Shown in pieces: positions 6,876 through 28,075 of a DNA stretch of 64,000 nucleotides (position 1 is its first letter; the number at the start of each line of letters is the position of its first letter). The position numbers and the translations under genes were made by a program. Under the pieces are notes generated by a model that saw only the letters and a program-made list of their open reading frames with translations, was not told the origin of the DNA and made no database searches. Source of the DNA: Paraburkholderia sediminicola (GTDB lineage Bacteria > Pseudomonadota > Gammaproteobacteria > Burkholderiales > Burkholderiaceae); NCBI RefSeq assembly GCF_902859805.1, contig NZ_CADIKC010000001.1:558001-622000 (forward strand), read 5' to 3'.

Positions 6876-7988
6876 TTACGCGTTGTCGCCCTCATCATCG
6901 CGCAGCTCCCACATACCACCATGAACCGTCTCAATCGACGGTGTCTCGAACCATTGATGCGGTGCCAGAATCTCCGCGCGTCGAACATTAGGCAACACCT
7001 GCACATCAAAAATCTCTTCCACGCCATTATAGAACTCCAGAATGCCCAGCACCTGGCCGCTCGCAAGCTCAATCGCCGCGACGCCGGCGACAAGCTCACC
7101 TCTGCTTTCGATAGGCAAGCCTTGTGGTCCCCGTTTCATCCGCAGCTTAGATAAGCCAACGAACAGGACGCCGCCATAAACGGCTAGTCCATGCGTGAAC
7201 CCCGGCAGTTCGGCAACCACGCGTTTGGTCCCTGTCGTGGTATCGATCTGCAAAACGTGTCCGCGGCCGCCTTCAAGCACGTAGAGCTGACCGTCAATAA
7301 CACGCGGCGAATGGGGCATCGATAGCCCTGATGCAACGATGCGTCCGCTCGGCACTTCCATGACGATACCGCCGTCGGCCATCCCTTCGCGCCAGCCATA
7401 GGACGTGTTCGTGTGACCCAAGGCGGTCGCAAACGACGCCTTGCGATCGTGAAACGCCATGCCATTCAGATGGCAGCGGTCGTCGCCGGTGAAATCGGTC
7501 AGGAAAGGTGGCCGCCAGAACGGCGTGAAGTTGAAGAATCCATCGATCACACAAAGGCACGAAAAACGCGTGTTGACTGCGATCACGCGTGGACCGTCGA
7601 GCGCCATGTCATGCAGGTCGCAATTGCCCGTGAAGTGCGCGACACGCGGCACGAACACGCCGTCATAGTGGTTCGGGCGCGCAGGGTATTGCTGCGCGAT
7701 CGCCTTTGCATTTGCGAAGACGATCACTTCGCGATGCGTCGCGATCGCCAGCCGGTCGCCTTCGACTGCGAGACCCATCGAGCGCGGCAACATGCAGGCC
7801 GACAGTGTCGGGACGCCTTTGTCGACGCCGAGTAGCGCAACGCCCGATGGCCGCCGGCTCAGTGCAAGTGAACAGTTCAATGCCTCGAGCGTCGCGAGAA
7901 AGCGACCCGTATCGCGCAAGTCGATCAAATCGGGCTTCTCTGCGATCCCGTTGCCTTGCACTTCATCCTTCAGTTCTGCTGCCTCCAC
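6876..7988 (-). CDS. TIGR03032/DUF4915-type protein of unknown function
   Basis: A protein of about 370 residues lacking a signal peptide. The frame opens with TTG at 7994, but the AGAGGA ribosome site fits the GTG at 7988 better. Conserved stretches include a HFTGNCDLHDMA segment, VNTRFSCLCVID, FWRPPFLTD, DRCHLNGMA, GGRGHVLQID and FDVQVLPNVRRAE, which match what I know of the TIGR03032 family. Repeated short strands of the type 'G-hydrophobic-L-Y-V-hydrophobic-D' suggest a beta-propeller. It follows the giant haemagglutinin gene on the same strand with a 100-bp gap, so it may be co-transcribed and serve adhesin production. The reaction, if any, is unknown. Confidence 0.8.
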   Translation of the reverse strand: MEAAELKDEVQGNGIAEKPDLIDLRDTGRFLATLEALNCSLALSRRPSGVALLGVDKGVPTLSACMLPRSMGLAVEGDRLAIATHREVIVFANAKAIAQQYPARPNHYDGVFVPRVAHFTGNCDLHDMALDGPRVIAVNTRFSCLCVIDGFFNFTPFWRPPFLTDFTGDDRCHLNGMAFHDRKASFATALGHTNTSYGWREGMADGGIVMEVPSGRIVASGLSMPHSPRVIDGQLYVLEGGRGHVLQIDTTTGTKRVVAELPGFTHGLAVYGGVLFVGLSKLRMKRGPQGLPIESRGELVAGVAAIELASGQVLGILEFYNGVEEIFDVQVLPNVRRAEILAPHQWFETPSIETVHGGMWELRDDEGDNA

Positions 7989-8094
7989 TGTCAATTTCCT
8001 CTTTCAGGTTGAAGCATTGTTTCGAAGGTTATACATCGCCGCGGCGTCCGTCGTTCGTACCCTCTGTCTCGTCGTACGCCACCGCAATAGCCAT

Positions 8095-11000
8095 CTATTT
8101 TTTGGCCCCCGGCTTCCGTTTCTTCTTCGAATCGTCTGAGTCATCCGAGTCATCCGAGTCTAAGGAGTTCGAGTTATCACCGAAGCCCTCCACTTCCACA
8201 GATATCACCCAGCGCCGCCCTGCCCCACCGGACGCATTGTTCTTCGCCAGATCCTGCGCCATCTGGTTCGCCGCCGATGCAGTCGAACTCGCCGACGTTA
8301 ATACGCCGGCATTGACCGACTGGCCCACCGGCACACCGAACGATTGTTGCGCCTGAATGTTGTCCGCATTCGCGACATGCAGCGCCGCGACGTTCAGGGT
8401 ACCCGAGACGCGAATCCCCGCATCGCCGGCATCCACCGTGCCGCGCGGCGCAACCAGCGTGGCATCGCCCACCGGCACGCCCGGTATGGTTTGCAGTGTC
8501 GCGATACCCGCGCCGGTCACCTCGCCCCGTGCGTCCACCGTGCAATAGTGATTCACGTCGCACACGTAATTCGGCGCCGGCACGTCCGCCACCGATTTGG
8601 ACCCCTTACCTGCATTGATGTCACCATTCGAACTCCAGATGGTCATGTTGCCACCCTGCTCGGTGAAAATCCGGCTTTGGGCAAGGAGAATGCTTTCGTC
8701 GGTGAAGATGTTGACGTCGCCTTTTTCCAGCGTCAGGATGCCCTGCGTGCTGGGACCGGCAAGTACCTGCCCCGTGCTATTGACGATGGCAGGCGGGGCC
8801 GACACGCTGCCTACCAATGCCTCGCCTCCTGGCCCAAGGATCGTTACATTGCCGCCCTGCTGCGTCTGGATAGTCGTGCTGCGAATGTCCAGGTTGCCGG
8901 TCTTCACGAGCGTGTTCGCCCCGTTGGCGCCTCCGCCGAGATTGTTCGCCGTGTAGCCTAGCGACGCCGGAAACAGCGTGTTGATTGCCTGGTAGCCGCG
9001 CGCGTACTGCTGGTAGAACCGGCTCGCCGGGTTGTTGTAGTCGTTGCCGACGTCCGTCAGGATCTTGAAGAACACCTGCTCGACGAACTGCTGCTGGACA
9101 TACGACGGCAACGCCTTGAACTGCGCCCATGCCTCGCTGCCCGTGAGTCCGCTCACGCTCTGGAGCGCGGCCTGCTTGTCTTTTGTGAGTCCGGTATCGA
9201 CCGCAAGCCCCGCGTCATACTGCTGCATGAACGCGATCCCGGTGGCCCCGAGGCCCTCGATGTTGCTGACGTTCCCGCTCGCTGGATCGATGTATGCCGA
9301 GATGAACTGCGCAATGTCGATGCCCGGGCCGACGCCGAACAATACCTGTACGTTTGCGCTTTCGTGCGGAAGGTTCGGATTATTGGCGTTGCCGACTGCA
9401 TCGATACCGGTCGGATCTGGGGTAAATCCGTCGTTTCTGCCGGATGCAATAAAGGCTTGCTGCTGATTAGATAGCGGCCCGATGTTTCGGCCCGCTTCGA
9501 CGTCGAAAGTACCAGGGCCACCAAGCACCAGGCTCGGGAGGACGGAATTGAGTCTAGATAGCGGCGTGTCATAGATATCACGCCCCGCGACAATCCGGGT
9601 GAAGTCGGACGACCGCAGATTTTGCCCCAGAAACGCCAGATTCACGATGTCCTGGCCGGCCTGGATCAGTGCGGGTTTGTCGATTACGACGCTCACATTC
9701 TGGTCGTAGAATCCTGCGTTTGTCGCACCGGCCGGCTCCAGCACGCCATCGACAATGCTGCCGTTCACGCTGTAGATATGGGCCAGTTGGTTATCGTCGG
9801 CGTGCAGCGGAGTCAGTGCGTGAGCGGTGCTGCTCAAACTTGTCTGCCCCGTTAGACCAGGCACCGACGCCGTCTGGTTGATCGGCGACGGCATCAGCGA
9901 GGGATCGAGATCGAGCATGCCAAATGCGGCCAACCTGCCGGACAGGAACGCAAATTGATTCGATACGTTAATCGACTGATCGGCGAGCAGATTCAGATTG
10001 CCTGATGCGGACGGGAATAGCGCGCCGCCTGAAGCAATCGTAATCCCGCCGCTGAATGCTGTCAGATTGACCGATGCGGGCAATACATAGGAGAGGTCGA
10101 TGGCACCGCCCCCGCCGCCGATCAGGCCAATCGAGCTAAGCGTGCCTAGCGCGACATCCCCGGTCGTCGACGATATGTCAACTGCGGAAGTTGAAGAATA
10201 AGACTGCCGGTCGGTGTGTTGGTGATAAGTGTTCACCAGTGCGCCGCCTGTGACGTACGACGGATCCAACACGCCACCAATATCGGCACCTTGCCGCGCG
10301 CTCACGTCGAGCGTGCCGTCCTGTGTCGCCAGCAGCGTTGAAACCGGAGCAATGGGCACGTTGACGGGGCGTCCGGTCCCAACGTTGTTCACGCTAAATT
10401 GCGTATAGACAGCTCCATCGGACCCGATCGCACCGCCTGCCGTAATGGTGCCCGTGCCTTTCGCGACAAAGTAGTCACCGCTCAAAATGTTGCCGCCCGC
10501 TGTCACGGTCAGATTCCCGCCGCCCACTGTGACGGGTACGTTGCTGCTGTTCAAATACCATGTGGTCGGCAGCGATACAGCGAGATCGGTAATGTTGCCT
10601 CCCGAGCTCACGGAGACATTGCCGCCTACGCTCATCACGCCCTGGCCGAAGGCGCCAAAGTCGATTGACGTCTGATTAATCTGCGTGAAATTAGAGCCGC
10701 CGGTCTGGCTATTCTGCGTTACCGTCGGGTTGCCCGTAATTTGCATCCATTGCCACCAGAATTGACTGATGTTCGCACCCACCACCCCAGTGACTGAGCC
10801 GGTCGCATCAGTCGCGTTTTCAATGCCGGTGATATCGCCCTGAGCGTGAATGGAAATGTCGCCTGCAGAGTCGGGGTTGACCGTGGGGCTCACCAGAATG
10901 TCCGGAAGAGCTTGTGAAGTATTTCCCTTCACAATCGTTGCTGTATTGCCGATCGTTGTTCCCACCGCCGGTGCGCCTGCCGTGTAGATAACGCCCGGCG

Positions 11001-14000
11001 CGGTCGAGTCAAGCAATGCGAAGTTGTTGCCCGCGGCAATATCGATCGAACCGGTGCCGGTGCGGATCATCGTCGGAGCGAGCAGTGCCACGTTGTTCGT
11101 ATCGACATAGGCAAAATGGCCATCGAGCGTCACGTCACCGCCGCCACCTGTTTTGAAAATGGACGCAGCCTGCACTGACAATGGATCAGCGCTGGCGAGA
11201 TCGGCGCCGGACACTACCCGGAACGACGTGCTCGATCCGCCGTTGACCGATGCCGCTGCCAGTGGCAACGGATTGGCGGAATTAGCAATCGGCGACGGCG
11301 TGTTGTCGGTCACGCCAGGAATAGTGACACTGACAATCGATCCACCGCCGCCGCTGGCCGGTGTGCCACCCGTAATCAAAGCAACGGGCTGCGGGATGGG
11401 AGCAGCCGGTGGGGTGAGCGGTGAGAAAGAACTCCAGTTTGCGTCCAGATAGGACTCGTATTTCGATAGATAAGCGAGATACAGCGCCGGATTGGCTGCC
11501 TGATCCGCTGCCGACGGCGGTGCCGGGGCAGGAACTGCCGAACCGGAAATGTGTATTCTCGAAGCGATGTAAGCTGCGTTAATGCTCGTCGCTGACCCGA
11601 TACCGGATATCTTTGCGGGCGCGAGGATGAAGTCCGCATAAGCCGCGTACAGCGCATAGTATTCTTTTATCTGCTCCGGATCGCCGCTTGTAAGTTGAAC
11701 CGGTGCGGTATCGACACCGGCGTATTGCGGGTTTGGGCCGTTGACGCCGTAGTAGGCAAGCGTATTGTTGTAGGGGCCGGCGGTCTCGGTGCTGTAGTTG
11801 TTGGATACTGTGGCGAAATCCGTACGGTTGGGTGCGTAGACGCTAAACGATTGGCCGGCGGTCACCGGATTCGCGATCTGAAAGAACCCATCCGTCAAAC
11901 TCGCATTCACCTGCACATCGTGCACCGCCCGGAACGTAATATCCGGCGCCTGCCCATTGAAGCGGAACGCCAGATTCGTCGGCGATGCGCCCGCGCCCAG
12001 ATTCCAGTTCGTCAACACGGAGATATCGCCGTTGTTGATTGCCGTACTCGGGTTGTCGAGTTCAATGCCAGGCACGACATGGAAGTTCGCCACATTGGTC
12101 GTGGCGAACTGGGCCGCGACACCCGTCAGGCCATTCTCGACGAAGCTCATCAAGGTACCAGGCACTGCGGCGGTCGCATCGCCACCGACATAGCCATAGA
12201 AGCTCTGGTGATCGGCATTGGCCGTCGTCGGTGTGAAAAAGTCGTTTGTCAGATAGGTTTTCAGTTGCTGCGCGCTCGTCGGCGCGGCCAGCACGGTGCC
12301 ACTCTGATCCGTCCACGTACCCGCAACCATGCCCGGTTGCCCCGCTCCCGCGACGCTATCGCCATACCATCCCGCCGGATCGACAATGCCGTCGAAATGC
12401 TTGGCACCCGTACTCGGATCAGTGGTGCTCCACACCGCGTACGCTTCCAGATTGACGCTGCGCGCATCCTTGATCTGCACGCCCGGTGCCAGCGTCACAT
12501 TCACGCCGCCGTTATCCAGCAACGGCGCACGGAAGCTCACAGTGCCACCTGACAACCCACCCGCCGTACCGCCCGTGACATCAATCACCGCGTTGTTGCC
12601 GAACTTGATGACACCGGAATTCGCCGCGGAAATATTCTCGTAGCCGTAAGTCGGGTTCACCGTGACTGTGCTGCCCGGCGTACCGGTTGTGTCGATGACG
12701 ATGGTGCCGCCGCGTTGCGTCGCGCTCGAACCAGTCGCAATGAGCGAGCCTTCGACATCCACTCCGCTCTTTCCATACAGACCGATCTGCCCGCCGGCAA
12801 CACCCGCTGCATTGATCGTACCGAGAATCTGCACATTGCCGTTGTTCGGATCTTGTCCACCCGCCCCGCCATCCGCCGTCAACGCCACCTGATGCGCGGT
12901 CAGCGTATTCCCCGCCGACAAGGTCAGATTGCCCGCGCCCGCCTGCACTGAAATCGCGCTATTCACACCGCTCGATGCCAGCGTGTGCGCAAGACTGTCG
13001 AGATTCACCGCGCCGCCAGTGTCGAGCGAGAATGAGCCACCTGCGAAACCCGTCGCCGCGCCGCCTTTCAGCGTGCCATTCAGATTGACCACCTGCTGCG
13101 GCGCCGACAGCGTAAGACTGCCCGCTGCTCCACCACCGCTCGCACCTGAGAAGTCGAGCGTGGAGCCGCTCAGCACGTTCACCGATCCAGTATCGGCCGT
13201 AAGCGTGATCGCCCCGGCGGGCGCGTATTCGGTGACATCGAAGAACGCCTTCGAGACACCCGCTGAACTGACCGTCGCGCTGCTGCCAATAGTCAGATCA
13301 CCGCTGGTCGCTTCGAGACTCACGTTTCCTGCAGGCGCAGCAATTTTCGCGTTGTCGTTAACCGTGCCGCCAATGAAGCTCCACGCGCCACCCAACGGCG
13401 TGTTCGTCAGCGCCGTGCCTGCTGCGCCATTGATTGTCAGCGCACCGCTCGTCTTCACGGTAGACGCGGAACTGGTATCCGCAAGATAGACCGGCGCGTT
13501 GAGCGTAACCGGCAGCGCGCCGAAATCGAATGTGCCGGTGTTCTGTCCGACGATGCCGCCCGTCGCGTTCATCGTCACGTTGCCAAAGCCGGACACGGTC
13601 TTGTTGCCCGTACCGAGGTCGATCTCCTTCGCGTTGACGGTCAGCGTGCCGCTGCCGCTCACACCGCTCGGAACCGGCGCGCCCGCTTCATTCGTGAACG
13701 CTATGGTCGCGCCATTGAGCGTGACCGAGCCACCATTGCTATCGAACGTACCCGCGCTCAGGTCGACGTTATTGCCGAACGTCGCATTGATATCGCCGAC
13801 AAAGTTCATCGCCCCGAGACTGCGCAGCGTGAGTTGCTGCGCGTTTGCGAGTTGCGCAAGACCGGCCGCGCCAATCACGAAGCCAGGCAGGTTCGCGGCG
13901 GCAGCTCCAGTTGCATTGGTGAACGTGATGGAAGAACCGGCAGCAGTGATTGCCTTGCCCGACAGTTGCACGGTCGGGTCGACTTTCAGATCGCCCGACG

Positions 14001-20000: not shown

Positions 20001-20688
20001 GAATCTGGCTCGGCAGGCCGCTCGGATCGTTAATGCGGTTCAGCACGACCCAGTTGTTCGCGCCATTGGTTTGCGCGCCACTCGACTGGTCGAAGTTGAG
20101 CGTGGTCTGTTTGCCCACGTTCATGGTCTGCCACGTCACCACCGCATTCTGGCCGGTCTGCTTCACATCGACATTGACATGACCGCTGCTGTCGACACTC
20201 TGCTGCGGCCCGTTCGCATTGATCCACAGCACCGGATTAGAGGTATCGGTGTTCTGACTGATCAGGTTGCCGTTGCCGTCCTTCACAAAGCTCACGCCCG
20301 GCGCAACCTGCAGGCCGCCGGCACCCAGACCGTTCGGCACATTGCCCGCAGCGCCAGCCGCCGCAGCCGCCTGTTGCGCGGCGACTTGCGCGGCAATCAC
20401 GGACGCGGCGCGACCCAGATTCTGAATGGACGGCTTGCTTGCCTGCAGCGCCTGCTGCGGCGACACACCCAGGTTCGGCACACCCGCGCCGCCCGCCGCG
20501 GCGTTGCCGCCGGCGGCCATGCGCGCGCCCAGTTGTCCAAGATTCACCATCCCTGCCGCATGCGCATTTGCCGCCGCGCCGGTCGCGATCATGATCGCAA
20601 TTGCCTGGCAGATTGGCCGCAGGGCAATACGCGATGCTTCGCGCGCGCGTGATGAACGTGAACGATGATTGGGCACGCTAGCTTTCAT
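8095..20688 (-). CDS. Giant filamentous haemagglutinin-family exoprotein (TpsA-like, DUF3739-type C-terminus)
   Basis: An intact 4197-residue surface or secreted protein. It starts with an extended signal peptide (basic residues to about 24, hydrophobic core, AHA cleavage near residue 44), usual for two-partner secretion. The filamentous-haemagglutinin N-terminal (TPS) domain lies at about 125-290. It includes NVDVKQTGQNAVVTWQ, NVGKQTTLNF, VVLNRINDPSG, ILGNVKAQGSVYVINRNGI and LFGAGSQVNVHSLMASS. About 3500 residues of Gly/Ala/Ser/Thr/Asn-rich strands follow, consistent with a long right-handed beta-helix. Near 3880-4130 a region with YARGYQAINTLFP and GTVDAGDAGIRVSG resembles the DUF3739 C-terminal region. 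The end is (DSD)-rich acidic repeats followed by KKKRKPGAKK. The ATG has an AGGAA site. No TpsB transporter gene is visible, and the three upstream TPR glycosyltransferases are on the same strand. Confidence 0.92.
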   Translation of the reverse strand: MKASVPNHRSRSSRAREASRIALRPICQAIAIMIATGAAANAHAAGMVNLGQLGARMAAGGNAAAGGAGVPNLGVSPQQALQASKPSIQNLGRAASVIAAQVAAQQAAAAAGAAGNVPNGLGAGGLQVAPGVSFVKDGNGNLISQNTDTSNPVLWINANGPQQSVDSSGHVNVDVKQTGQNAVVTWQTMNVGKQTTLNFDQSSGAQTNGANNWVVLNRINDPSGLPSQILGNVKAQGSVYVINRNGILFGAGSQVNVHSLMASSLDFLNTNNHLIQTPADIAQSNVLFLQQSGGLAGLEAGQSNPQASGSRSPNEVLGLGNTVTDPTAGQYQTPGAVMIAPGASISTATNGTASDGGFVLVAAPSVTNAGSITATGGQVILAAGVGVGLTPNPTNPQVLLPELTGALRVPTTNGNSVDVTPVGSLVNTGIVQAARGNVTLLGSSVAQNGVVGTTTSVSQPGSITISTVDEYSANTPTGTAYTGPGVLLVQTGPNGDPTNRAGQLTFGNGSLTTVLPDTDGATATSSPGTTFTPGSIAMKAGSVWLQSGSLIEAPGSTVSITALTPKVAGDRQPAGDTSVPGRIYLDTGAIIDVSGLANVELPISSTLVTVPRIGQNELADSPLLRNSFLFGLKNVVFDSTLSGTNADGLQWVGSPILNLSGYVSLIPRSVDQLLTNGGTIDLAGAQVMTASGSSMNLNGGYVHYDGGILNTTRLVDANGAIVPIGQANPLDTYVGVAGQFVERHPRWNVTNTWSNPLLTGGAYQADYIVGGNAGTLNVFASDAMVLNGDISAQAFGGSKQVQGNAQPTGGAFTLGVVGAQATQGAVLSSTTGESGTVILQGSAPSLDSLTPGFSNDTPLNTAALATLASTDPNNVLATKVVPVDTLSNGGFAKVSVAEDSTGGKGIVVAQGAQLKVQPGGSITLNSPAQGSTVNVLGELVAPAGTITISSSGNIVVGPDALISAAGQWVNNDTQSAPGTTSGNSQFINGGSITLSTVETSARSGSNSNPSFTDVTGSIDLQQGSVLDVSSGGEMLANGQMLMQNGIARGRGGNVSLLTYTGTQFGTPGTLLTLPGSQPTTGSIAMDGTIKSEGFSGGGTLTLQALGFQVGGDPTAAPAWDLFLPANFFSQQGFGKYVLNAFYDATIEPGTTVALTQLNRVPNTVALQQAVSGADLGANGLTTLSVLDPFHRQPTSLVMTAGSYLSWQSPSNVLPSYTDTGVTGAVTVGEGASIHADAGASVGLGSPAQVTVLGSIIAPGGTITLSGDTFSGSPYVQSGQLANSNDVSPTKSVWLGADALLDVSGVALINPLAAPVKTGLATTVPTTGKVLAGGSVNISNDSGVIVAQAGSTINVSGASATFDEPLASGVYAPQSVWSDAGSITLVGSSALYFDGTLKAQPGAAQAQGGTLTLLAQQQPVNNASQPGGGPKFTAPGASLIALQQSGTLVPAGLAPGQEFDGTPSGVLQFSVDRLEGSGISTLALGNSSSGTAPVPVAFVGNVDLSLGRAVSIASGQIVALSSDQLAALVSSDSTKRSTLASVLAKGTQTIGAPTVTIDAPYVSIGASLTGTASQTNLTPVKALADGTLNVNASFIDLENQFQLNNFGQANFTSSGDIRMSSTNASNASGSPNALQAGELYTAGNLTFKAADIYPSTGSTFIIDAVGPNDPSTGKPVPTTITFLPNGTSGVPLSAGGSLIVDANQIVQSGTVRAPSGSLVFGVGDPTNTTTVTQFNGLPIVATDSVTLGNGSVTSVSNDGAIIPFGTTVDGVEWQFNPIASLSAAPDLTAPPAKFIGVNGSKVALNPGASIDLSGGGDLQAAEWVPGTGGSRDVLSQYNVSYASTASGVALPVNANAGNVYAILPGAQSPVAAYDPMFAQSLQPSTNANGTVSTTTLSAGVGQAALNSAVGQSVYLSGVPGLAVGVYTLLPGKYATLPGAYRVTLASASGAVTPNAAQILPDGTAMVAGYSVDALSGARSATPTLFDVQSGKVWQQYSQYTLTGANQFFPQLASSAGKVTPLLPVDGGQLALAAINALTLGAALNTAAGTGGAPAEVDIASKDIQITGNGGPALAGYLQIGASDLDSLNAGSLLIGGTRAQTSGGITITPIADSVVVSNNASSALSGPEVLLVTKTDPTGTDPNAANGLRVDAGSVITASGNYPAAKDVPITIGQLANSATSTPAISGDGALLRVSNGASVTVSRFDTSGTGVLTVGAGATLTGGQSLTLDSSGDLKVDPTVQLSGKAITAAGSSITFTNATGAAAANLPGFVIGAAGLAQLANAQQLTLRSLGAMNFVGDINATFGNNVDLSAGTFDSNGGSVTLNGATIAFTNEAGAPVPSGVSGSGTLTVNAKEIDLGTGNKTVSGFGNVTMNATGGIVGQNTGTFDFGALPVTLNAPVYLADTSSASTVKTSGALTINGAAGTALTNTPLGGAWSFIGGTVNDNAKIAAPAGNVSLEATSGDLTIGSSATVSSAGVSKAFFDVTEYAPAGAITLTADTGSVNVLSGSTLDFSGASGGGAAGSLTLSAPQQVVNLNGTLKGGAATGFAGGSFSLDTGGAVNLDSLAHTLASSGVNSAISVQAGAGNLTLSAGNTLTAHQVALTADGGAGGQDPNNGNVQILGTINAAGVAGGQIGLYGKSGVDVEGSLIATGSSATQRGGTIVIDTTGTPGSTVTVNPTYGYENISAANSGVIKFGNNAVIDVTGGTAGGLSGGTVSFRAPLLDNGGVNVTLAPGVQIKDARSVNLEAYAVWSTTDPSTGAKHFDGIVDPAGWYGDSVAGAGQPGMVAGTWTDQSGTVLAAPTSAQQLKTYLTNDFFTPTTANADHQSFYGYVGGDATAAVPGTLMSFVENGLTGVAAQFATTNVANFHVVPGIELDNPSTAINNGDISVLTNWNLGAGASPTNLAFRFNGQAPDITFRAVHDVQVNASLTDGFFQIANPVTAGQSFSVYAPNRTDFATVSNNYSTETAGPYNNTLAYYGVNGPNPQYAGVDTAPVQLTSGDPEQIKEYYALYAAYADFILAPAKISGIGSATSINAAYIASRIHISGSAVPAPAPPSAADQAANPALYLAYLSKYESYLDANWSSFSPLTPPAAPIPQPVALITGGTPASGGGGSIVSVTIPGVTDNTPSPIANSANPLPLAAASVNGGSSTSFRVVSGADLASADPLSVQAASIFKTGGGGDVTLDGHFAYVDTNNVALLAPTMIRTGTGSIDIAAGNNFALLDSTAPGVIYTAGAPAVGTTIGNTATIVKGNTSQALPDILVSPTVNPDSAGDISIHAQGDITGIENATDATGSVTGVVGANISQFWWQWMQITGNPTVTQNSQTGGSNFTQINQTSIDFGAFGQGVMSVGGNVSVSSGGNITDLAVSLPTTWYLNSSNVPVTVGGGNLTVTAGGNILSGDYFVAKGTGTITAGGAIGSDGAVYTQFSVNNVGTGRPVNVPIAPVSTLLATQDGTLDVSARQGADIGGVLDPSYVTGGALVNTYHQHTDRQSYSSTSAVDISSTTGDVALGTLSSIGLIGGGGGAIDLSYVLPASVNLTAFSGGITIASGGALFPSASGNLNLLADQSINVSNQFAFLSGRLAAFGMLDLDPSLMPSPINQTASVPGLTGQTSLSSTAHALTPLHADDNQLAHIYSVNGSIVDGVLEPAGATNAGFYDQNVSVVIDKPALIQAGQDIVNLAFLGQNLRSSDFTRIVAGRDIYDTPLSRLNSVLPSLVLGGPGTFDVEAGRNIGPLSNQQQAFIASGRNDGFTPDPTGIDAVGNANNPNLPHESANVQVLFGVGPGIDIAQFISAYIDPASGNVSNIEGLGATGIAFMQQYDAGLAVDTGLTKDKQAALQSVSGLTGSEAWAQFKALPSYVQQQFVEQVFFKILTDVGNDYNNPASRFYQQYARGYQAINTLFPASLGYTANNLGGGANGANTLVKTGNLDIRSTTIQTQQGGNVTILGPGGEALVGSVSAPPAIVNSTGQVLAGPSTQGILTLEKGDVNIFTDESILLAQSRIFTEQGGNMTIWSSNGDINAGKGSKSVADVPAPNYVCDVNHYCTVDARGEVTGAGIATLQTIPGVPVGDATLVAPRGTVDAGDAGIRVSGTLNVAALHVANADNIQAQQSFGVPVGQSVNAGVLTSASSTASAANQMAQDLAKNNASGGAGRRWVISVEVEGFGDNSNSLDSDDSDDSDDSKKKRKPGAKK

Positions 20689-20828
20689 TGTCTATTCCTG
20701 AGCACTCTTGACTTGACGACCGTCAGTACAGCGCAACGCTCAGCGCTTGTCCCCGAAACGGCCCCCCCGCATGCGGCACGCACGGCCGCATTGATCCACG
20801 GGAGCATAGGGATGCTGCGTGGCAGCGA

Positions 20829-20856
20829 TATTTACGATGATCAGGACAATTGACAA
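20829..20856 (-). promoter_or_regulatory. Possible promoter of the haemagglutinin gene
   Basis: On the minus strand TTGTCA (20851-20856) is followed after 16 bases by TAAATA (20829-20834), about 140 bases before the haemagglutinin start. It lies in the 253-bp gap after the third TPR gene. It is a reasonable but imperfect sigma-70 pair. Confidence 0.3.
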
Positions 20857-20941
20857 TGGGTTAAATGTACGTACCTTCTGTCACTCTGCGTTAATCAGAG
20901 CGCGGTGCGTTCAACCCCATATCAGCGACGGGTTCCGCGCG

Positions 20942-23167
20942 TTACGACGCACATCGATTCGCAAGTTGGCGTGCAACACGCGCGACGACCTCTTCCCAAT
21001 CACCTGGCTTCTGTTGACGAAAAAGCCGTGCCTGCGGATACCACGGACTATCTTCGCGTTCGAGCAACCAGCGCCAATCGGGCACACCGGGCAGTAAAAC
21101 CCAGAACGGTTTGCCGAGCGCGCCAGCGAGATGGATGACCGATGTATCGACAGAAATCACCAGATCGAGCGCATTCACCAACGCAGCCGTATCCGAAAAG
21201 TCCTTCAACTCGGTGCCGAAATGAATCAGACCGCTGTCTTGCAGCGACTGTGCGTCGCGCTCGCGCACGAACTGATGCAGGCTGAAAAAACTCGCGTGCT
21301 GCGTATAAAGCGGCGCCAGCATCTCCAGCGGCACGGATCGGTTCTGGTCGTTGTTGTGCGCCGGGTTGCCCGACCACGCGAGTCCGATTCTGAGCGTTCC
21401 GGGTCGCGCTGCGGCATCGACCTTGTCGGCCCATATGCGGCTGTTTTCCGCATCCGCTTGCAGATAAGGCGTGGAAGAGGGAATCGTGTCGAGTTGTGTG
21501 CCGAACGCGAACGGCACGCTCAACAGCGGGCATTGCAGATCGAACGACGGCAGCGGGTCACCCATTGAAACCACTTCGCTCGGACCATGCAGCGATTCCA
21601 TCAATTGCGTTAATGCGCTGGGCACCTCGAGAATGACGCGAGCACCGCGTGCGGCAACCAGGCTTGCGTAGCGGCAAAACTGCAGCGTATCGCCATAACC
21701 CTGTTCGGCATGCAGCAACACCGTCTTTCCATCCACTGACGCATCGCCGCTCCACGACGGCTGCCGCTCATGACGCCGATGACGGGCAATCGACGGATCG
21801 CGCCAGCGGTTTTCGTGCTGCCGCCACCCTTCAGCGAAATCGCCCGTCAGCAGGCGGCAGAATGCCTCGGCCGCTTGCGCCGTGAACAGCGCGGGATCCA
21901 GCTCCTGTGCGCGCTGAAAGCACGTGATCGCCTCCGCGTGCCGCTGCAACTGCTGCAACGAGAGACCGCGCATGTACCACGCATGCCCCGTGTCGGTCGG
22001 CGATACAAGCGCCTGTTCGTAGCTGTCGAGCGCGTCGTCATGGCGACCCAGTTGCTGCAGGACGTTGCCACGGCTCCAATAGAGTTCAGCGCTCGGCCCG
22101 GCAGCCAGCGCACGATCGTAGCTTTCGAGCGCGTCGGCGTGACGCGCCATCAGATGCAGCGCGACGCCACGGTTGTTGCTTGCGGCGTCGAGGCCCGGCG
22201 CGCGTGCCAGTGCGCTGTCGAAGGCAACGAGCGCATCGGCATGCCGTTTCATACCTTCAAGTGCATTGCCCCGGCCGAGCCACGCGAGCGCATGATCCGG
22301 TTCCAGCGCAAGCAAGCGATCGCAGCGCGCGAGCAATGCGTCGTAGCGGTGCAGATTGTCGAGCACCACGCAACCGTTGTAGAGCGCAGCGACGTCATGC
22401 GGATTCGCTTCAAGTATCTCGTCGTAGCATGCAAGCGCGTCTTCTTCCCGGCCCAGTAACTGCAGTACGCCGCCACACGCCAGCAATACGTCGACCGTCT
22501 TCGGGCGAATCACGAGCGCAGTGCGATAAGCCTGCAATGCGCGGTCGCATTGTCCGAGGTCGCGCCACGCGTGCGCACTGTTCAGATGCGTGGCGTATTC
22601 GTTGGGCGTCAACGCGAGCGCGCGGTCGTAGCTGATCAACGCGTCAGCCGGACGGTTCAGCGCGCGCAGCACGTTGCCGCGATTGCTCCACGCTTCCGGC
22701 AGCGCGCTCGACACGGCGAGCGCCGCGTCATACGCACTCAACGCTTCCAGATACTGCTGAAGCGCCAGTTTCACGTTGCCAAGCGCCACCAGCGCCGGCG
22801 CAAGCCGTGGTTCGAGTCGTAGCGCGCGATCGAGCACCGCCAGCGCCTCGTCATTGCGGCCGAGCCGCACCAGGACCGCGCCGTGGTTGGCCAAGGCCCA
22901 TCCATAGCCCAGCCCGAGACTGAGCGAGCGCGCAATCAACGGCTCGGCCGCCTCCGCCTCGCCATTGTGTAAATGCGCGACGCCTAGCAGATGCAACGCG
23001 TAGGCGTTCGCGGGGTCGATGGCAAGCACGGCACGATACCCATGTTGCGCTTCCGCCAGTTTCCCGCGTTCGTGCTGGCCTCGTGCGAACTGCAGCATAT
23101 GATCGATGACCGGTTGTCCCGGCATCGCAGCTTGCGGCGCTAGCGCTTCCGCGTGTTTGAATAGCAT
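20942..23167 (-). CDS. TPR-repeat protein with C-terminal heptosyltransferase-like domain (copy 3)
   Basis: A 741-residue protein with no signal peptide, so cytoplasmic. Residues from about 30 to 430 are tandem tetratricopeptide repeats of 34 residues with the usual A-x-G/A-x-Y-x-A-L pattern and P at the end of helix B. The last 300 residues form a GT-B type domain like GT9 heptosyltransferases: LLHAEQGYGDTLQFCRY, then GLAWSGNPAHNNDQNRS, then LVISVDTSVIHLAGALGKP and PDWRWLLEREDSPWYP. It lies four bases after the second copy and 253 bases before the giant haemagglutinin. I infer that it glycosylates a protein, most likely the haemagglutinin, using the TPRs to hold it. The donor sugar is unknown. 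Confidence 0.85.
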   Translation of the reverse strand: MLFKHAEALAPQAAMPGQPVIDHMLQFARGQHERGKLAEAQHGYRAVLAIDPANAYALHLLGVAHLHNGEAEAAEPLIARSLSLGLGYGWALANHGAVLVRLGRNDEALAVLDRALRLEPRLAPALVALGNVKLALQQYLEALSAYDAALAVSSALPEAWSNRGNVLRALNRPADALISYDRALALTPNEYATHLNSAHAWRDLGQCDRALQAYRTALVIRPKTVDVLLACGGVLQLLGREEDALACYDEILEANPHDVAALYNGCVVLDNLHRYDALLARCDRLLALEPDHALAWLGRGNALEGMKRHADALVAFDSALARAPGLDAASNNRGVALHLMARHADALESYDRALAAGPSAELYWSRGNVLQQLGRHDDALDSYEQALVSPTDTGHAWYMRGLSLQQLQRHAEAITCFQRAQELDPALFTAQAAEAFCRLLTGDFAEGWRQHENRWRDPSIARHRRHERQPSWSGDASVDGKTVLLHAEQGYGDTLQFCRYASLVAARGARVILEVPSALTQLMESLHGPSEVVSMGDPLPSFDLQCPLLSVPFAFGTQLDTIPSSTPYLQADAENSRIWADKVDAAARPGTLRIGLAWSGNPAHNNDQNRSVPLEMLAPLYTQHASFFSLHQFVRERDAQSLQDSGLIHFGTELKDFSDTAALVNALDLVISVDTSVIHLAGALGKPFWVLLPGVPDWRWLLEREDSPWYPQARLFRQQKPGDWEEVVARVARQLANRCAS

Positions 23168-23171
23168 AGGC

Positions 23172-25397
23172 TCACCCGTGCGGTGATACGTTAGTCGACA
23201 CCACAGATCGCAGCGCTTCGCTCACGCGCGGCAGCACGTTGCTCCAATCGCCCGGCCCCGGCTGCCGGAACAGCCGCATACGCGGATACCACGGACTGTC
23301 ATCGCGATCGAACAGCCAGCGCCAATCCGGCCAGTGCGGCAGCAATACCCAGCAAGGCTTACCGAGCGCACCGGCCAGATGGGCAACCGACGTGTCGACG
23401 CTCAAAACCAAATCCGTGAGTTCGATCAGCGCCGCCGTATCGGAGAAGTCACGCACCTCGTCGCCGAAGTACGCAACGCCGAGTGAATCGAGCACTGCCC
23501 GATCATCGTCACTCAGCGGCTTTTGCAAACTGATCCATTCGTACGCATCCGTGAGTACGGGCCGCAACTGTTCCAGCGCGATCGAGCGGTTGTGGTCGTC
23601 GAGATGCTTGGGGTTGCCTGCCCAGACAATGCCGACCCGCGGACGGCTCGCGGTGCCGAGTCGTGCACGCCACTTGTCGACGAGCACCGGATCGGCCTGC
23701 AAATACGGCGGCCCCGACGGGATGGCGTCGAGCTCCGTGTGAAAGGCGCGCGGCAGACTGAGCAACGGACAGTGCAGATCGAAGATCGGCAACACGTCGC
23801 CTTGCGCGACCAGTTCGTCGACACCATCGAGCCCGCGAAGCAGCGACTTCAATGCCGGCTGAACTTCGAGAATGACATGCGCGCCCAGCGCTTTGACAAG
23901 CGGCGCATAGCGGCAAAACTGCATCGTGTCGCCGAAGCCCTGCTCCGCGTGGAGCAGGATCCGCTGACCAGCAAGCGATTGAGTACCGTCCCATGTGGGA
24001 TGGGCGAAGTCGCGTTTTTGCGAGCCGACCTGCGGCTCGCGCCAGCGCCATTCATATTCCGGCCAGCCGCGTGCGAAATCACCGGTGATCAGATAAACGA
24101 AGGCCTGCGAAAAATGCGTATCGACATCGTCCGGATCGATTTCGAGTACCCGTTCGAACGCTTCCAATGCTTCGCGATGGCGCTTCATCACCCGCAGCGT
24201 ATTGCCGCGCTGAAAGACCACCATCCGCTCTCGCGGCGCAAGCGCCACGGCACGATCATGCGCAACCAGCGAGTCTTCATATCGCAATAGCCGGTGCAGC
24301 ACGATCGCGTAACTGGACCATGCCGGGCCATACTCCGAATCCAGTGCAAGCGCGCGTTCGCTGCTTTGCAACGCGTCCTCGATTCGACGAAGCTGACACA
24401 ACACGCGCGTGCGGTTGCACAGCGTCTCGATCGAGTCCGGCTCGATCTGCAGCGCGGCGTCATAGCTCGCCAGCGCCGCATCGAACTGCAACAACTTCTG
24501 TTGCGCATTACCGCGGTTGGCGAGCGCCTTCGCGTGGTCCGGTTGCAGTGCAAGCACCCGCTCGCAGCGCACCGTCGCTTCGTCGTAGCGCCTCAGGCGC
24601 TCCAGCACGACTGAGCTGTTGTACAACGCGTCGATGTAATCGGGTTGCCACGCGATCGACTCGTTGAGGCCCGCCAGCGCCTCGGGCAATCTGCCGAGAT
24701 CCGCCAGCGTCATGCCGCGCAGGAATAGCAAACGTGCGTTGCCAGGCGAGATCGCCAGCGCGCGCTCGCAGTGGTCGAGCGCTGCTTCGCTGCGTCCCAT
24801 TTGCCTGAGCACATCGGCGCAATACCCCAATACCTCCAATGACGCCGGCTGCACCGCGCGCGCCCGCTCGAACGACGCCAGTGCCTCCGGCGCGCGTCCC
24901 AACGTGAGCGCGACTGCGCCGTGGCGGCATAGCGCGTCGACCAGCGTCGGCGCAACCTTCAGCACATGGTCCCACGCCGCTAGCGCCTCATCGAACCGTG
25001 TCATTTCTTCCAGCAGACTCGCGCGTTGGGCCAGTGCACGCAGATGCGCCGGGTTGAGCGTCACCGCTTCGGTCAGACAGTTCAACGCCTCGTCGCGACG
25101 TCCCAGGCTCGTCAGCACAGAAGCGCGATTGGCGAGCGCTAACGCAGTGGGAGCAAGGTCGATGGCGCGTTTCAACGACGCGTCGGCTTCTTCGGCCCTG
25201 CTCTGCTGGAACTGCAAGACGCCGAGGCCGTGCCATGCCTGTGCGTGATCGGGCGAGTCGGCTAGCACGACGCGGTAGCCGCTTTCCGCCTCCGCGAAAC
25301 TCCCGCGTTCGTGAGCTGCATGTGCGGCGCTGAACAGGTCTTGTGTGGCCGCACGGTGCCCGCTGACCGGCGCGTTCGCTGCCACGTCAGCGTCCAT
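23172..25397 (-). CDS. TPR-repeat protein with C-terminal heptosyltransferase-like domain (copy 2)
   Basis: A 741-residue paralogue of its neighbours. I start it at the ATG at 25397, which overlaps the end of copy 1 by 11 bases. A GTG at 25442 would add 15 residues. TPR repeats fill about residues 20-430, and the C-terminal domain has LLHAEQGFGDTMQFCRY, VGIVWAGNPKHLDDHNRS, LVLSVDTSVAHLAGALGKP and PDWRWLFDRDDSPWYP. All motifs seen in the other two copies are intact, so it is not a decaying duplicate. The TPR halves differ more than the catalytic halves, as expected if the copies recognise different acceptor segments. Confidence 0.85.
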   Translation of the reverse strand: MDADVAANAPVSGHRAATQDLFSAAHAAHERGSFAEAESGYRVVLADSPDHAQAWHGLGVLQFQQSRAEEADASLKRAIDLAPTALALANRASVLTSLGRRDEALNCLTEAVTLNPAHLRALAQRASLLEEMTRFDEALAAWDHVLKVAPTLVDALCRHGAVALTLGRAPEALASFERARAVQPASLEVLGYCADVLRQMGRSEAALDHCERALAISPGNARLLFLRGMTLADLGRLPEALAGLNESIAWQPDYIDALYNSSVVLERLRRYDEATVRCERVLALQPDHAKALANRGNAQQKLLQFDAALASYDAALQIEPDSIETLCNRTRVLCQLRRIEDALQSSERALALDSEYGPAWSSYAIVLHRLLRYEDSLVAHDRAVALAPRERMVVFQRGNTLRVMKRHREALEAFERVLEIDPDDVDTHFSQAFVYLITGDFARGWPEYEWRWREPQVGSQKRDFAHPTWDGTQSLAGQRILLHAEQGFGDTMQFCRYAPLVKALGAHVILEVQPALKSLLRGLDGVDELVAQGDVLPIFDLHCPLLSLPRAFHTELDAIPSGPPYLQADPVLVDKWRARLGTASRPRVGIVWAGNPKHLDDHNRSIALEQLRPVLTDAYEWISLQKPLSDDDRAVLDSLGVAYFGDEVRDFSDTAALIELTDLVLSVDTSVAHLAGALGKPCWVLLPHWPDWRWLFDRDDSPWYPRMRLFRQPGPGDWSNVLPRVSEALRSVVSTNVSPHG

Positions 25398-27687
25398 GGC
25401 GAAGGCTCGCAGTGTCGTCAATCGTTCGCGACGTTGCTTCACGCAGCGCGTTTTTGACGGACTCGATTGCCGAAGCCCAGTCTCCCGGTTTGCCTTGGCG
25501 GAATAGACGCGCCGTTGGATACCACGGGCTGTCGGTTCTGTCGCTCAGCCAGCGCCAGTCGGAAGGCTCAGACAGCAGCAGCCATACCGGCCGGCCCAAT
25601 GCACCCGCCAGATGCGCGACGCCGGTATCGACCGCAATGACGAGATCGAGAGCGCTCACCAGCGCGGCCGTGTCGGAGAAGTCACGGATTTCGTTGGCCA
25701 GGTTGCTCAACGGCAGCGTGGCAAGATCAGCCTTGTCTTCATCCCGCACCAGCTTTTGCAGACTGATCCAGTCGACGTCCGGCGCCGACTTCACGAGCGG
25801 CGCCAGACTCGCCAGACGGATCGAGCGATTCCGGTCGTTCAGATGCTGCGGATTGCCGGACCATACGACACCTACGCGCATCCGGCGATCATCGCCCAGT
25901 AGTTGTCGCCACTTTTCCACCATCTTGGGATCGGCGGCAAGATACGGCGTGTGTGCAGGCAGCGTCGTGAGATCAGTGCCGAGTGCTAGCGGCACGCTAA
26001 GCAGCGGGCAATGGAAATCGTACGGCGGCAAAGGCTCGCCTTTCGAGAAAATCTGTGAGGGACCCCGCAATGACGGCATCAGCAGCCGCAACGCAGGTTG
26101 CACCTCGAGCAATACCTTCGCTCCGCGCGCCACGATAGGCTCCACGAAACGGCAGAACTGCAACGTGTCGCCAAAACCTTGCTCCGCGTGCAGCAGGATG
26201 GTTTTTCCGTTCAGGTCCTCGGCACCCGACCAGCGCGGCGCAGTCAGGTCGTGGCGCGCGTCCTTCGAGGCTGGGTCGCGCCAGCGCCATTCGTATTCGC
26301 TCCAACCGCGCTCGAAGTCACCCTGACGCAAATAGACGAAAGCGCGCGCGCCGTGGGCATCGAAGTGTTCGGGTTCGAGCGCAAGCGCCCGCTCGTAGGC
26401 TTCTAATGCTTCGCCAGGTTTCGCTACGTTCAGCAATACGTTGCCCCGGTTCAACCACGCAATCGTCGAGCGCGGGTCGATTTCCAGCATGCGTTCATTA
26501 GCCGCCAATGCCTCGTCGAAACGCTGCAGATCCTGCAGCACGTTGCCGCGATTACCCCATGCCGCAGCGAATGAAGGCTCGATGGCGAGAACCTGGTCGA
26601 GGTTGGTGAGTGCTTCGTCGTAGCGCCCCAGGTGCCGCAGCGCTGTGCTGCGGTTGCATCGCATGCTTGTGGATTGCGGATCGAGCAAAAGTGCGGCGTC
26701 GTAGTCGGTCAGCGCCGACTTGTAGTCCTTCAATGCAAGCCGCGCGTTCGCCCGGGTTGCCAGCGCCCTCGCGTGTTGTGCTTGCAAGGCAAGCACACGG
26801 TCGCACCGCGCCACGACTTCCTGCACGTGGCCGAGATGCTCGAGCGCCACGGCGCTGTTGTAGAGCGCGTCGATGAGATCCGGCTGTCCGGCGATCGCTT
26901 CGTTGAAACTCGCCAACGCCTCCCGCGCACGCCCCATGTCGATCAGCAGCATGCCGCGCATGTTCAGAATGGCCGGGTGGTTGGGCGCGATCTCCAGCGC
27001 GCGATCATAAGCGCCCAGCGCTTCGGCATGCCGGCCCTGCAACTTGAGCACGTTGCCGCGATTGGCGTGCGATTCGAAGGAACGCGGATCGACTGTCAAG
27101 GCTGCCGCATAGGTATCCAGCGCCTCCTGATAGCGGCCAAGCACGCGCAACGCACTGCCGCGGTTGCATAAGGCATCGAGTGTCATCGGCGCGACGGCCA
27201 GGGTCTGGTCGTAGGCGGCAACGGCTTCCTCGTAACGCCCCGCTTCGATCAGCGTGTTGCCACGGCGCACCAGCGCGTGCAAATCGCGTGGATCAAGCTT
27301 GAGGGCCGCGTCGAAACATGCCAGTGCTTCGTCGATCTGTCCGCCGGCGGCGAGGATGGAGCCGAGATTGGCGAGTGCGAGCGGTTGCGGCATGAGCTGC
27401 GTCGAGCGGCGCAGCAGTGTCAGCGCGCGCTCAGGTTGTCCCTGCTGCGCGTGAAGCACGCCGTATAGATGTAAGGCTTCCGCGTCGTCCGGCTGGTCGG
27501 CGAGCAACGTTTCGTAGGCCCGTTTCGCTTCGTCGAGGCGACCGCCTTCGTGCAGAAGCGTCGCCTGCACGAGCGTCATGCGAGGTTCAGCATAACCGGT
27601 AGCCGCCGCTTCGCCCGCCGTCGTTTCGTGAATCCGCGCGTTTGCCGGCGCCGGCTGGATCGCCACGCCTTGCTGTGCGTTTTGCAT
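25387..27687 (-). CDS. TPR-repeat protein with C-terminal heptosyltransferase-like domain (copy 1)
   Basis: A 766-residue first member of the three-gene set. The frame is open to 27927, but the ATG at 27687 has a GAGG site at good spacing and is chosen. An ATG at 27801 would give 804 residues. TPR units run from about residue 35 to 460. The C-terminal domain shows LLHAEQGFGDTLQFCRF, VGVVWSGNPQHLNDRNRS, LVIAVDTGVAHLAGALGRP and SDWRWLSDRTDSPWYP. It is divergent from gspI across 388 bases. Genes with TPRs plus a GT9-like domain are often called 'glycosyltransferase family protein', and the exact acceptor has not been shown here. Confidence 0.85.
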   Translation of the reverse strand: MQNAQQGVAIQPAPANARIHETTAGEAAATGYAEPRMTLVQATLLHEGGRLDEAKRAYETLLADQPDDAEALHLYGVLHAQQGQPERALTLLRRSTQLMPQPLALANLGSILAAGGQIDEALACFDAALKLDPRDLHALVRRGNTLIEAGRYEEAVAAYDQTLAVAPMTLDALCNRGSALRVLGRYQEALDTYAAALTVDPRSFESHANRGNVLKLQGRHAEALGAYDRALEIAPNHPAILNMRGMLLIDMGRAREALASFNEAIAGQPDLIDALYNSAVALEHLGHVQEVVARCDRVLALQAQHARALATRANARLALKDYKSALTDYDAALLLDPQSTSMRCNRSTALRHLGRYDEALTNLDQVLAIEPSFAAAWGNRGNVLQDLQRFDEALAANERMLEIDPRSTIAWLNRGNVLLNVAKPGEALEAYERALALEPEHFDAHGARAFVYLRQGDFERGWSEYEWRWRDPASKDARHDLTAPRWSGAEDLNGKTILLHAEQGFGDTLQFCRFVEPIVARGAKVLLEVQPALRLLMPSLRGPSQIFSKGEPLPPYDFHCPLLSVPLALGTDLTTLPAHTPYLAADPKMVEKWRQLLGDDRRMRVGVVWSGNPQHLNDRNRSIRLASLAPLVKSAPDVDWISLQKLVRDEDKADLATLPLSNLANEIRDFSDTAALVSALDLVIAVDTGVAHLAGALGRPVWLLLSEPSDWRWLSDRTDSPWYPTARLFRQGKPGDWASAIESVKNALREATSRTIDDTASLRHGR

Positions 27688-28075
27688 TGTTTGCCTCGCT
27701 ATCGCGGTGTGCCCGTGGCTGCCCTTGCGTAGCAGCTTTATACGGAGATCAGGGAGATCGGCCCACTCGACCCATTGGACCCGTTCGACCTGCAGGGCCA
27801 TTGCTCGTCGACAGAGATTAGCCGAGCTCGCATAACGGGCGTGTGACGCAAGGTACGGACACCTGCGGTATTGCGGCTCAAAATGGGGCCGCACGTTGTT
27901 CAGTACATTTCGACATGCAGCAGGCACATCTCAGCGCTACATTCAAGGCGTCCTGGCGCGAGGAGGCCAATCCTTTGCGTTCACAGAAAGCAAACCGCCT
28001 CGACACGCGTCGAAACAAACGTGCTTTTTCGCACGACGTATTGCAGCAGCACGTATTGATCCAATATCACGGCCT
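27688..28075. other. Divergent intergenic region between TPR copy 1 and gspI
   Basis: There are 388 bases with no convincing gene. The stretch around 27765-27795 repeats the words GACCCATTGGACCCGTTCGACC. Promoters for the two divergent transcripts are expected, but none is clear. If TPR copy 1 began at 27801, part of this would be coding. Confidence 0.4.

What the first reader, a model, noticed from the sequence alone, without database searches (positions are those of the whole stretch)
6876..27687. Giant haemagglutinin with three tandem TPR-heptosyltransferase-like proteins: a possible adhesin glycosylation locus
Five same-strand genes occur in order: three intact TPR+GT9-like proteins, a 4197-residue filamentous haemagglutinin and a TIGR03032-type protein. 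Heptosyltransferase-like enzymes (Aah/TibC) glycosylate autotransporter adhesins, but they do not carry long TPR arrays and do not act on TpsA proteins. Three diverged copies beside a protein with thousands of Ser/Thr/Asn suggests a dedicated multi-enzyme modification system in which each TPR domain reads a different part of the adhesin. The conserved motifs in all three copies argue against decay.
Basis: partly seen in the sequence, partly recalled or inferred. Interest (0 to 1): 0.8.

Follow-up and report, generated by a model that had tools for sequence, protein, structure and literature searches.

The report
OGT-like enzyme triad guarding giant adhesin
Next to the gene for a giant protein that is predicted to be secreted, these bacteria carry three tandem genes whose proteins combine a long protein-grasping coil with a predicted sugar-transferring domain, are kept together across many related species, and would likely decorate the giant protein with sugars before it leaves the cell; this is untested.

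Summary
The five genes are real and intact. The window is Paraburkholderia. The giant haemagglutinin (4197 aa) is the TpsA of a larger locus, partly left of the window: TpsB, ExbB/ExbD/TonB, porin, PpiC and a type II secretion system. This gene set resembles the Pseudomonas PUMA3/Pdt-Hxc locus. The three upstream proteins are a fixed triad: the order GT1-GT2-GT3-TpsA was read in 29 distinct loci. They form three separate orthologous clades (31, 31 and 30 members, no mixing) under purifying selection (dN/dS 0.10-0.14). Of 31 Burkholderia-group loci found through the neighbouring ExbB gene, 27 have the triad; of 49 loci outside that group, none. The predicted structure is a TPR superhelix plus a GT-B-like domain; its best whole-chain PDB matches are SPINDLY and human OGT. 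So the glycosylation reading is well supported by linkage and fold, but sugar, linkage chemistry and substrate are untested. The claim that each TPR reads a different adhesin part is not established. All 30 GT3 copies lack a lysine kept in 61 of 62 GT1/GT2 copies. New variant of a known kind: a dedicated glycosyltransferase partner for two-partner secretion.

The parts
25387..27687 (-). GT1: TPR array + GT9-like GT domain (766 aa from ATG; frame open to 27927)
   Evidence: orthologue clade of 31
23172..25397 (-). GT2: TPR array + GT-B-like domain (from ATG 25397; GTG at 25442 also possible); overlaps the end of GT1
   Evidence: AF2 model pLDDT 90.9; orthologue clade of 31
20942..23167 (-). GT3: TPR array + GT domain, 741 aa, 4 bp after GT2; lacks the lysine of the SLQK motif
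   Evidence: orthologue clade of 30, 30 of 30 without Lys
8095..20688 (-). TpsA: giant DUF3739 filamentous haemagglutinin family protein, 4197 aa, with hydrophobic signal-like segment near the N-terminus
19894..20136 (-). TPS (adhes_NPXG, TIGR01901) secretion domain of TpsA, residues 185-265
   Evidence: E 5.3e-16
8329..8655 (-). DUF3739 domain of TpsA, residues 4012-4120
   Evidence: E 5.3e-32
6876..7994 (-). TIGR03032/DUF4915 protein, predicted beta-propeller, no signal peptide apparent
5385..6671 (+). PBP_like_2 protein, possible counterpart of the LapA/DING substrate of an Hxc-type T2SS (inferred)
   Evidence: present in 9 of the 10 mapped close loci
4206..5096 (+). protein of unknown function with a CPLC motif, resembling one left of the window
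   Evidence: (no Pfam match)
1479..3962 (-). GspD secretin of the T2SS
1..1482 (-). GspE ATPase of the T2SS (continues left of the window)
27896..28483 (+). GspI pseudopilin ORF (T2SSI, E 2.5e-19), divergent from GT1; true start probably later
28407..29156 (+). second ORF with prepilin methylation motif, probably a T2SS pseudopilin

Best explanation
The locus likely makes a glycosylated giant exoprotein: three conserved TPR-glycosyltransferase-like proteins, predicted to be built like the cytosolic enzymes OGT and SPINDLY, would bind the neighbouring TpsA protein in the cytoplasm and add sugars to it before export. Shown here: the triad, its fixed order before TpsA, three separate orthologous clades, purifying selection, and no hydrophobic signal-like N-terminus in the three GTs. 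Predicted: the TPR superhelix plus GT-B-like fold (GT2 modelled). Inferred: TpsA then leaves through Sec and the TpsB pore encoded in the same locus, whose dedicated ExbB-ExbD-TonB set may energise or sense the process as in the PUMA3/Pdt locus. Inferred: GT1 and GT2 are catalytic. GT3, which lacks the SLQK lysine, has either another donor or an accessory role. Inferred: the linkage is to Ser/Thr rather than Asn, because Asn sequons are not clearly enriched. The donor is unlikely to be a nonulosonic acid, since the genome shows no NeuB.
Against: No biochemistry. The catalytic pocket was not examined, and the long whole-chain structural alignments have rmsd 11-13 A and TM-scores of 0.34-0.54, so the TPR part carries most of the match and domain placement differs. 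Pararobbsia silviterrae keeps a 60%-identical TpsA with no triad (G016/G178) and has the highest Ser+Thr (20.1%) of the 16 TpsA compared, so Ser/Thr richness does not follow the triad. Six distant TpsA proteins of similar size do without it. G126 has only two copies and G097 a 260-aa GT3 fragment. GT3 lacks a lysine found in 175 of 241 homologous domains. Sequence gives only partial GT9 likeness and none to GT41.
Confidence: 0.6

Rival explanations
1. The three enzymes are glycosyltransferases but act on another target, such as another locus product, other envelope proteins or a glycan, and sit here because the cluster is one co-regulated unit.
For: The locus also encodes a T2SS, a porin and other exported proteins. 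TpsA can exist without the triad (G016). The sugar donor and acceptor are unknown. Four of the genome's other TPR-GT genes are single genes away from any adhesin of this kind.
Against: The triad is immediately upstream of tpsA, not of the other genes, in 29 distinct loci. In five of the 22 loci the contig differs in length from that of the ExbB locus (L133, L139, L144, L149, L152), so there triad and TpsA are together while TpsB-ExbB is on another contig (this may only be an assembly break). Long TPR superhelices suit protein rather than glycan substrates (general knowledge).
Confidence: 0.22
2. The TPR proteins are secretion chaperones that hold the giant unfolded TpsA for Sec export, and the GT domain is a structural relic or regulatory sensor.
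For: TpsA is 4197 aa and must stay unfolded (general knowledge of two-partner secretion). GT3 lacks the SLQK lysine in 30 of 30 copies. TPR arrays are common in chaperones.
Against: The E, D, H, W and Y residues of the core motifs are invariant in 92 of 92 triad domains, and the GT halves are as constrained as the TPR halves. GT1 and GT2 keep the lysine in 61 of 62.
Confidence: 0.12
3. One reading: heptose transfer, with each TPR domain reading a different segment of the adhesin.
For: A short GT9-like stretch; three diverged copies; TPR halves 36-42% identical between paralogues.
Against: No donor evidence; the GT9 match covers 31-54 residues. TPR halves also diverge faster between orthologues, so the extra divergence between paralogues is modest.
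Confidence: 0.06

Closest known systems
[quoted passage not shown]
   Same: Cytoplasmic glycosyltransferase encoded beside a TpsA-TpsB pair that covalently modifies the TpsA (PMC5422565 passages; PMC3983070 listing and outline only)
   Different: One enzyme per system against three here; N-linked mono- and di-hexoses; GT41 family (recalled). Here no GT41 match and no clear sequon enrichment (61 seen, 51 expected)
FlmG, flagellin O-glycosyltransferase of Caulobacter crescentus
   Same: N-terminal TPR domain that binds the substrate, C-terminal GT-B-type domain, soluble and cytoplasmic (PMC7591256 passages and section 10)
   Different: One gene, six flagellin substrates, pseudaminic acid donor; the host genome here has no NeuB.
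O-GlcNAc transferase (OGT) and SPINDLY of eukaryotes
   Same: Best PDB matches of the whole predicted chain: TPR superhelix followed by GT-B
   Different: Catalytic sequence is GT41, substrates intracellular (both recalled); the GT domain here has a GT9-like motif
PUMA3/Pdt-Hxc locus of Pseudomonas aeruginosa (PdtA, PdtB, ExbB2, ExbD2, TonB4, PA0696-PA0699, Hxc T2SS, alkaline phosphatase)
   Same: Like gene set: TpsA, TpsB, ExbB, ExbD, TonB, PpiC, T2SS (PMC2729926 passages; PMC4971064 passages). Equating the porin with PA0696 and the PBP-type protein with the alkaline phosphatase is my inference. Llamas et al. already report PUMA3 relatives in Burkholderia vietnamiensis
   Different: No TPR glycosyltransferase or DUF4915 gene in the regulated-gene table seen in that paper. 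The window lacks a VreR-like anti-sigma at the locus. No P. aeruginosa sequence was compared
Aah/TibC autotransporter heptosyltransferases
   Same: Glycosylate adhesins; heptosyltransferases
   Different: No TPR array, autotransporter substrates (recalled; seen only as reference-list entries)

Membership tests
GT9 heptosyltransferase (PF01075) | Full-length match above the curated cut-off | tested here: not met
   31-33 residues matched; only GT1 passes 22 bits (26.8), GT3 20.3, GT2 19.2. hhalign to three GT9 proteins of the same genome: 54 columns, probability 84%
GT41 (OGT/SPY/HMW1C) | GT41 sequence profile PF13844 | tested here: not met
   Not among the hits for GT2 and GT3 at E<=0.01 nor for the GT1 domain at E<=0.1; hhalign probability 1.2% against two GT41-like proteins of the genome, one of them cut short
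GT41 (OGT/SPY/HMW1C) | N-terminal TPR/TPR-like domain joined to a GT-B catalytic domain | tested here: met
   Predicted model of GT2; the GT part alone was not modelled
HMW1C-type third partner of TPS | Glycosyltransferase-like gene beside tpsA, product cytoplasmic | tested here: met
   no hydrophobic signal-like N-terminus in GT1-3
HMW1C-type third partner of TPS | N-linked modification at NX(S/T) sequons | tested here: inconclusive
   61 sequons against 51 expected from composition in the window TpsA; near expectation in the other 15
FlmG class | TPR N-terminus and GT-B-type C-terminus in one soluble protein | tested here: met
FlmG class | Nonulosonic acid donor made by a NeuB synthase | tested here: not met
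   PF03102: 0 matches in the genome, 9 of 14 control genomes positive
FlmG class | Sequence orthology with FlmG | not tested
   FlmG sequence not obtained
PUMA3/Pdt two-partner secretion locus | TpsA with TPS domain plus TpsB with POTRA and ExbB/ExbD/TonB in one cluster | tested here: met
PUMA3/Pdt two-partner secretion locus | VreR-like anti-sigma factor at the locus | tested here: not met
   Absent in the window genome's locus and in G097; present in 7 of the 9 triad-bearing loci checked
PUMA3/Pdt two-partner secretion locus | pho box before tpsA | tested here: not met
   No site of 10/12 or better within 700 bp before TpsA or GT1 in the window; sites at 84 and 78 bp before TpsA in G129 and G144 (simple consensus)
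Protein glycosyltransferase acting on TpsA | Sugar on TpsA that depends on the triad | not testable with these tools
   Needs mass spectrometry and deletions

The most novel reading that the evidence does not exclude
A three-enzyme, OGT/SPINDLY-like protein O-glycosylation machine dedicated to one giant secreted protein: GT1 and GT2 are active transferases and GT3 is a conserved lysine-less partner that works only with them, a bacterial counterpart of OGT with a GT9-like catalytic core and a non-sialic donor.
Probability: 0.3. Interest if true: 0.78.

Novelty: new variant of a known kind. Interest (0 to 1): 0.62.

Why it matters
The two-partner adhesin system with a glycosyltransferase partner that I found in print (HMW1C) uses one enzyme per adhesin. 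A conserved set of three non-interchangeable TPR enzymes beside one substrate of about 4200 residues would be a natural test bed for how TPR arrays choose substrates, a question also open for FlmG-type and OGT-type enzymes. It also adds a possible modification step to a Pdt-type adhesin of a large, mostly environmental bacterial group, and gives a candidate tool for cytoplasmic protein glycosylation.

Tried and rejected
Heptosyltransferase membership: rejected as a firm label. GT41 membership by sequence: not met. A Ser/Thr test of TpsA: the six distant triad-less TpsA have 13.2-15.6% Ser+Thr and the nine beside GT genes (two of these with an incomplete set) 16.7-19.5%, but the close triad-less one (G016) has 20.1%, so the difference follows ancestry. 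Sequon enrichment: none clear. Pho box at the triad or TpsA in the window: none by a 10/12 consensus rule (5 sites seen in 94 kb, 5.65 expected from single-base shuffles). Idea that the triad replaced the sigma/anti-sigma pair: rejected, since 7 of 9 triad-bearing loci keep a VreR-like gene. Asn-ladder count in the TPRs: Asn at position 6 in 43% (GT1), 26% (GT2), 14% (GT3) of the repeats that matched a simple pattern; suggestive of OGT only for GT1, and not used. An earlier reading that every TPR-GT above 430 bits belongs to a triad was dropped: G038:C93 (446.7 bits) falls outside the three clades, as does G017's best hit. One search scored at most 15 candidates per genome, so its lesser paralogues are undercounted. 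Plasmid search for annotated triads: two Burkholderia records with near-full-length hits have 3 places each; the two Burkholderia-group stretches opened (H2, H11) carry no annotated genes; the Azospirillum hit opened (H4) lies among unrelated genes. B. cenocepacia glycoproteome paper PMC11237607: no occurrence of haemagglutinin, two-partner, adhesin or TPR in the main text (term search only). Papers: no hits for DUF3739 or TIGR03032; searches for TPR glycosyltransferase with two-partner secretion returned only the two HMW1C papers, and one search returned FlmG, one HMW1C-like and two unrelated papers; on Burkholderia flagellin glycosylation gave only a listing. First profile comparison with GT9 and GT41 used wrong frames for some proteins and was repeated. 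One search read protein ids that could be mixed with gapped alignment rows; its tree was rebuilt with clean sequences, with the same three clades (supports 0.997/0.986/1.0 before, 0.985/0.906/1.0 after).
Full report
What is there. The window lies in a Paraburkholderia genome of 8.6 Mb (nearest haemagglutinin relatives are P. agricolaris 92% and P. fungorum 91% over TpsA residues 120-620). Five minus-strand genes are intact: three TPR-glycosyltransferase-like genes, then a 4197-aa TpsA with a TPS domain (TIGR01901) and DUF3739, then a TIGR03032/DUF4915 gene. GT2 overlaps the end of GT1, GT3 starts 4 bp after GT2, TpsA starts 253 bp after GT3, and DUF4915 100 bp after TpsA, so the three GT genes look like one transcription unit (inference).

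The unit is larger than the finding. GspD and GspE lie downstream inside the window, and GspI plus a second methylation-motif protein lie divergently upstream. Left of the window, on the same strand, are GspF, GspG, GspH, GspL, GspM, TpsB (POTRA_2 and ShlB), a DUF2341-LamG-ExbB fusion, ExbD, TonB, Porin_5, YbjN, PpiC and a DegP-like protease. A PBP_like_2 protein, possibly a LapA/DING-type T2SS substrate, lies between. This resembles the gene list of the P. aeruginosa PUMA3 region (PMC2729926, passages): Hxc T2SS, alkaline phosphatase, TpsA PA0690, TpsB PA0692, ExbB2/ExbD2, a TonB homologue, PA0696-PA0698 and the PpiC PA0699. That paper already notes PUMA3 relatives in Burkholderia vietnamiensis. 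pdtA and phdA respond to phosphate starvation through PhoB and VreI (PMC4971064, passages). So the haemagglutinin is a Pdt-type TpsA by gene neighbourhood; no P. aeruginosa sequence was compared.

Linkage. Among 150 genomes of the family, 23 have DUF3739 (32 loci). I mapped 16 of these 32 loci: the window and 15 stretches from 14 other genomes. Ten have the window's own TpsA or one 59-65% identical to it in the best alignment; seven of these have the full order GT1-GT2-GT3-TpsA, G126 has two copies, G097 has two plus a 260-aa GT3 fragment, and G016 has none. The six distant ones (26-28% identical) have none; in five of them, and in G016, a FecR-type anti-sigma gene sits just before TpsA instead (the sixth, G069, was not examined for this). 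A search with the ExbB fusion across named species genomes found 395 stretches that encode a relative and kept the best 80 loci. TpsB is within the fetched stretch in 80 of 80. In the 31 loci of Burkholderia, Paraburkholderia, Caballeronia, Trinickia and Pararobbsia and a Burkholderiales MAG (three of the 31 are MAGs), 27 genomes hold a cluster of three or four triad-type GT domains; the exceptions are one with two copies at a contig end (G164), two MAGs (G168 none, G180 scattered) and Pararobbsia silviterrae. In the 49 others (Dyella, Luteibacter, Pinirhizobacter, Pseudomonas, Cupriavidus, Alcaligenes, MAGs of Lysobacterales and Alphaproteobacteria) none has a triad: one solitary match at E<=1e-100 among 19, two solitary matches at E<=1e-60 among 30; a much more diverged set in the first 19 could have fallen below the stricter limit. 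I fetched 22 of the 27 clusters (the other five were already mapped under other handles): all 22 read GT1-GT2-GT3-TpsA, one with an extra GT1-like copy.

Three lasting copies. In a tree of 340 GT domains (92 triad domains, 241 from the 120 listed homologues, seven others) the GT1, GT2 and GT3 sets are each one clade, with supports 0.985, 0.906 and 1.0, and no member crosses over; the only outsiders inside are P0022 (the window's own GT2) and its 92% relative P0058. The homologues are the best 120 listed of 7998. The triplication therefore predates the split of these genera, and all three copies were mostly kept. Against P. fungorum (one pair), dN/dS is 0.102, 0.137 and 0.111 for GT1, GT2 and GT3, with both halves at 0.09-0.14; the compared part of TpsA (1713 codons) gives 0.127. 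This argues against decay.

How it probably works (inference). The three GTs have no hydrophobic signal-like N-terminus, while TpsA has such a segment (best 15-residue hydropathy near the N-terminus 0.35-1.07 against 1.91; no signal-peptide program was run). The simplest model is that the triad binds TpsA in the cytoplasm through the TPR superhelices and transfers sugar, as FlmG does to flagellin through its TPR domain (PMC7591256) and HMW1C does to HMW1 (PMC5422565). The donor is unlikely to be a nonulosonic acid, because NeuB gives no match in this genome. Asn sequons in TpsA are near the number expected by composition (61 against 51), so O-linkage is the better guess. GT3 may have another donor or be an accessory subunit.

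What speaks against it. Nothing shows sugar on TpsA. Pararobbsia has the same type of TpsA, richer in Ser+Thr than any of the other 15 compared, and no triad. TPR halves are more diverged than GT halves between paralogues (36-42% against 53-55% identity), but this is also so between orthologues (56-60% against 63-68%), so the claim that each TPR domain reads its own part of the adhesin is not established.

Verdict. The glycosylation reading is the best explanation (0.6), but it is a new variant of a known kind: TpsA systems with a glycosyltransferase partner and TPR-bearing protein glycosyltransferases are both in print. New here, as far as the searches show, are the fixed triad, its restriction to the Burkholderia group among the loci examined, and the lysine-less third copy.

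Noticed in passing
left of the window, L002:9671-11515 (-): ExbB proton-channel domain fused to DUF2341 and a laminin-G-like domain, next to TpsB, ExbD and TonB; TpsB is within the fetched stretch in 80 of 80 named loci found with this fusion. A TonB-type motor beside a two-partner secretion pore also occurs in the PUMA3 locus; its role is unknown to me.
   Followed up: partly
6876-7994: TIGR03032/DUF4915 is a predicted beta-propeller with invariant His, Cys and Asp motifs, tied to this TpsA system in the Burkholderia group; function unknown.
   Followed up: partly
30575 (before the PLD-domain gene 30658-33147, +): A pho-box-like site (11 of 12 consensus bases, 83 bp before the gene); 0.25 such sites expected in 94 kb by single-base shuffling, 1 seen. 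May mark a phosphate-regulated phospholipase D-like gene.
   Followed up: no
4206-5096 (+) and L002:2876-3679 (-): Two similar-looking proteins of unknown function with a CPLC motif flank the secretion cluster on either side.
   Followed up: no
L136 (genome of Paraburkholderia sp. BCC1885): Four GT copies instead of three, the extra one GT1-like.
   Followed up: no
G000:C15:30628-40682: A second TpsB and a 2895-aa open frame with Fil_haemagg_2 lie on contig 15, about 24 kb from a single TPR-GT paralogue.
   Followed up: partly
homologues P0006-P0125: Most of the 120 listed TPR-GT homologues carry two GT domains in one chain (111 with two, 5 with three, 4 with one); the list favours long proteins.
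   Followed up: no
window locus compared with G011, G075, G106, G122, G126, G130, G148: The VreR-like anti-sigma gene is present in seven related loci but missing in the window genome's locus and in G097, so regulation may differ here.
   Followed up: partly
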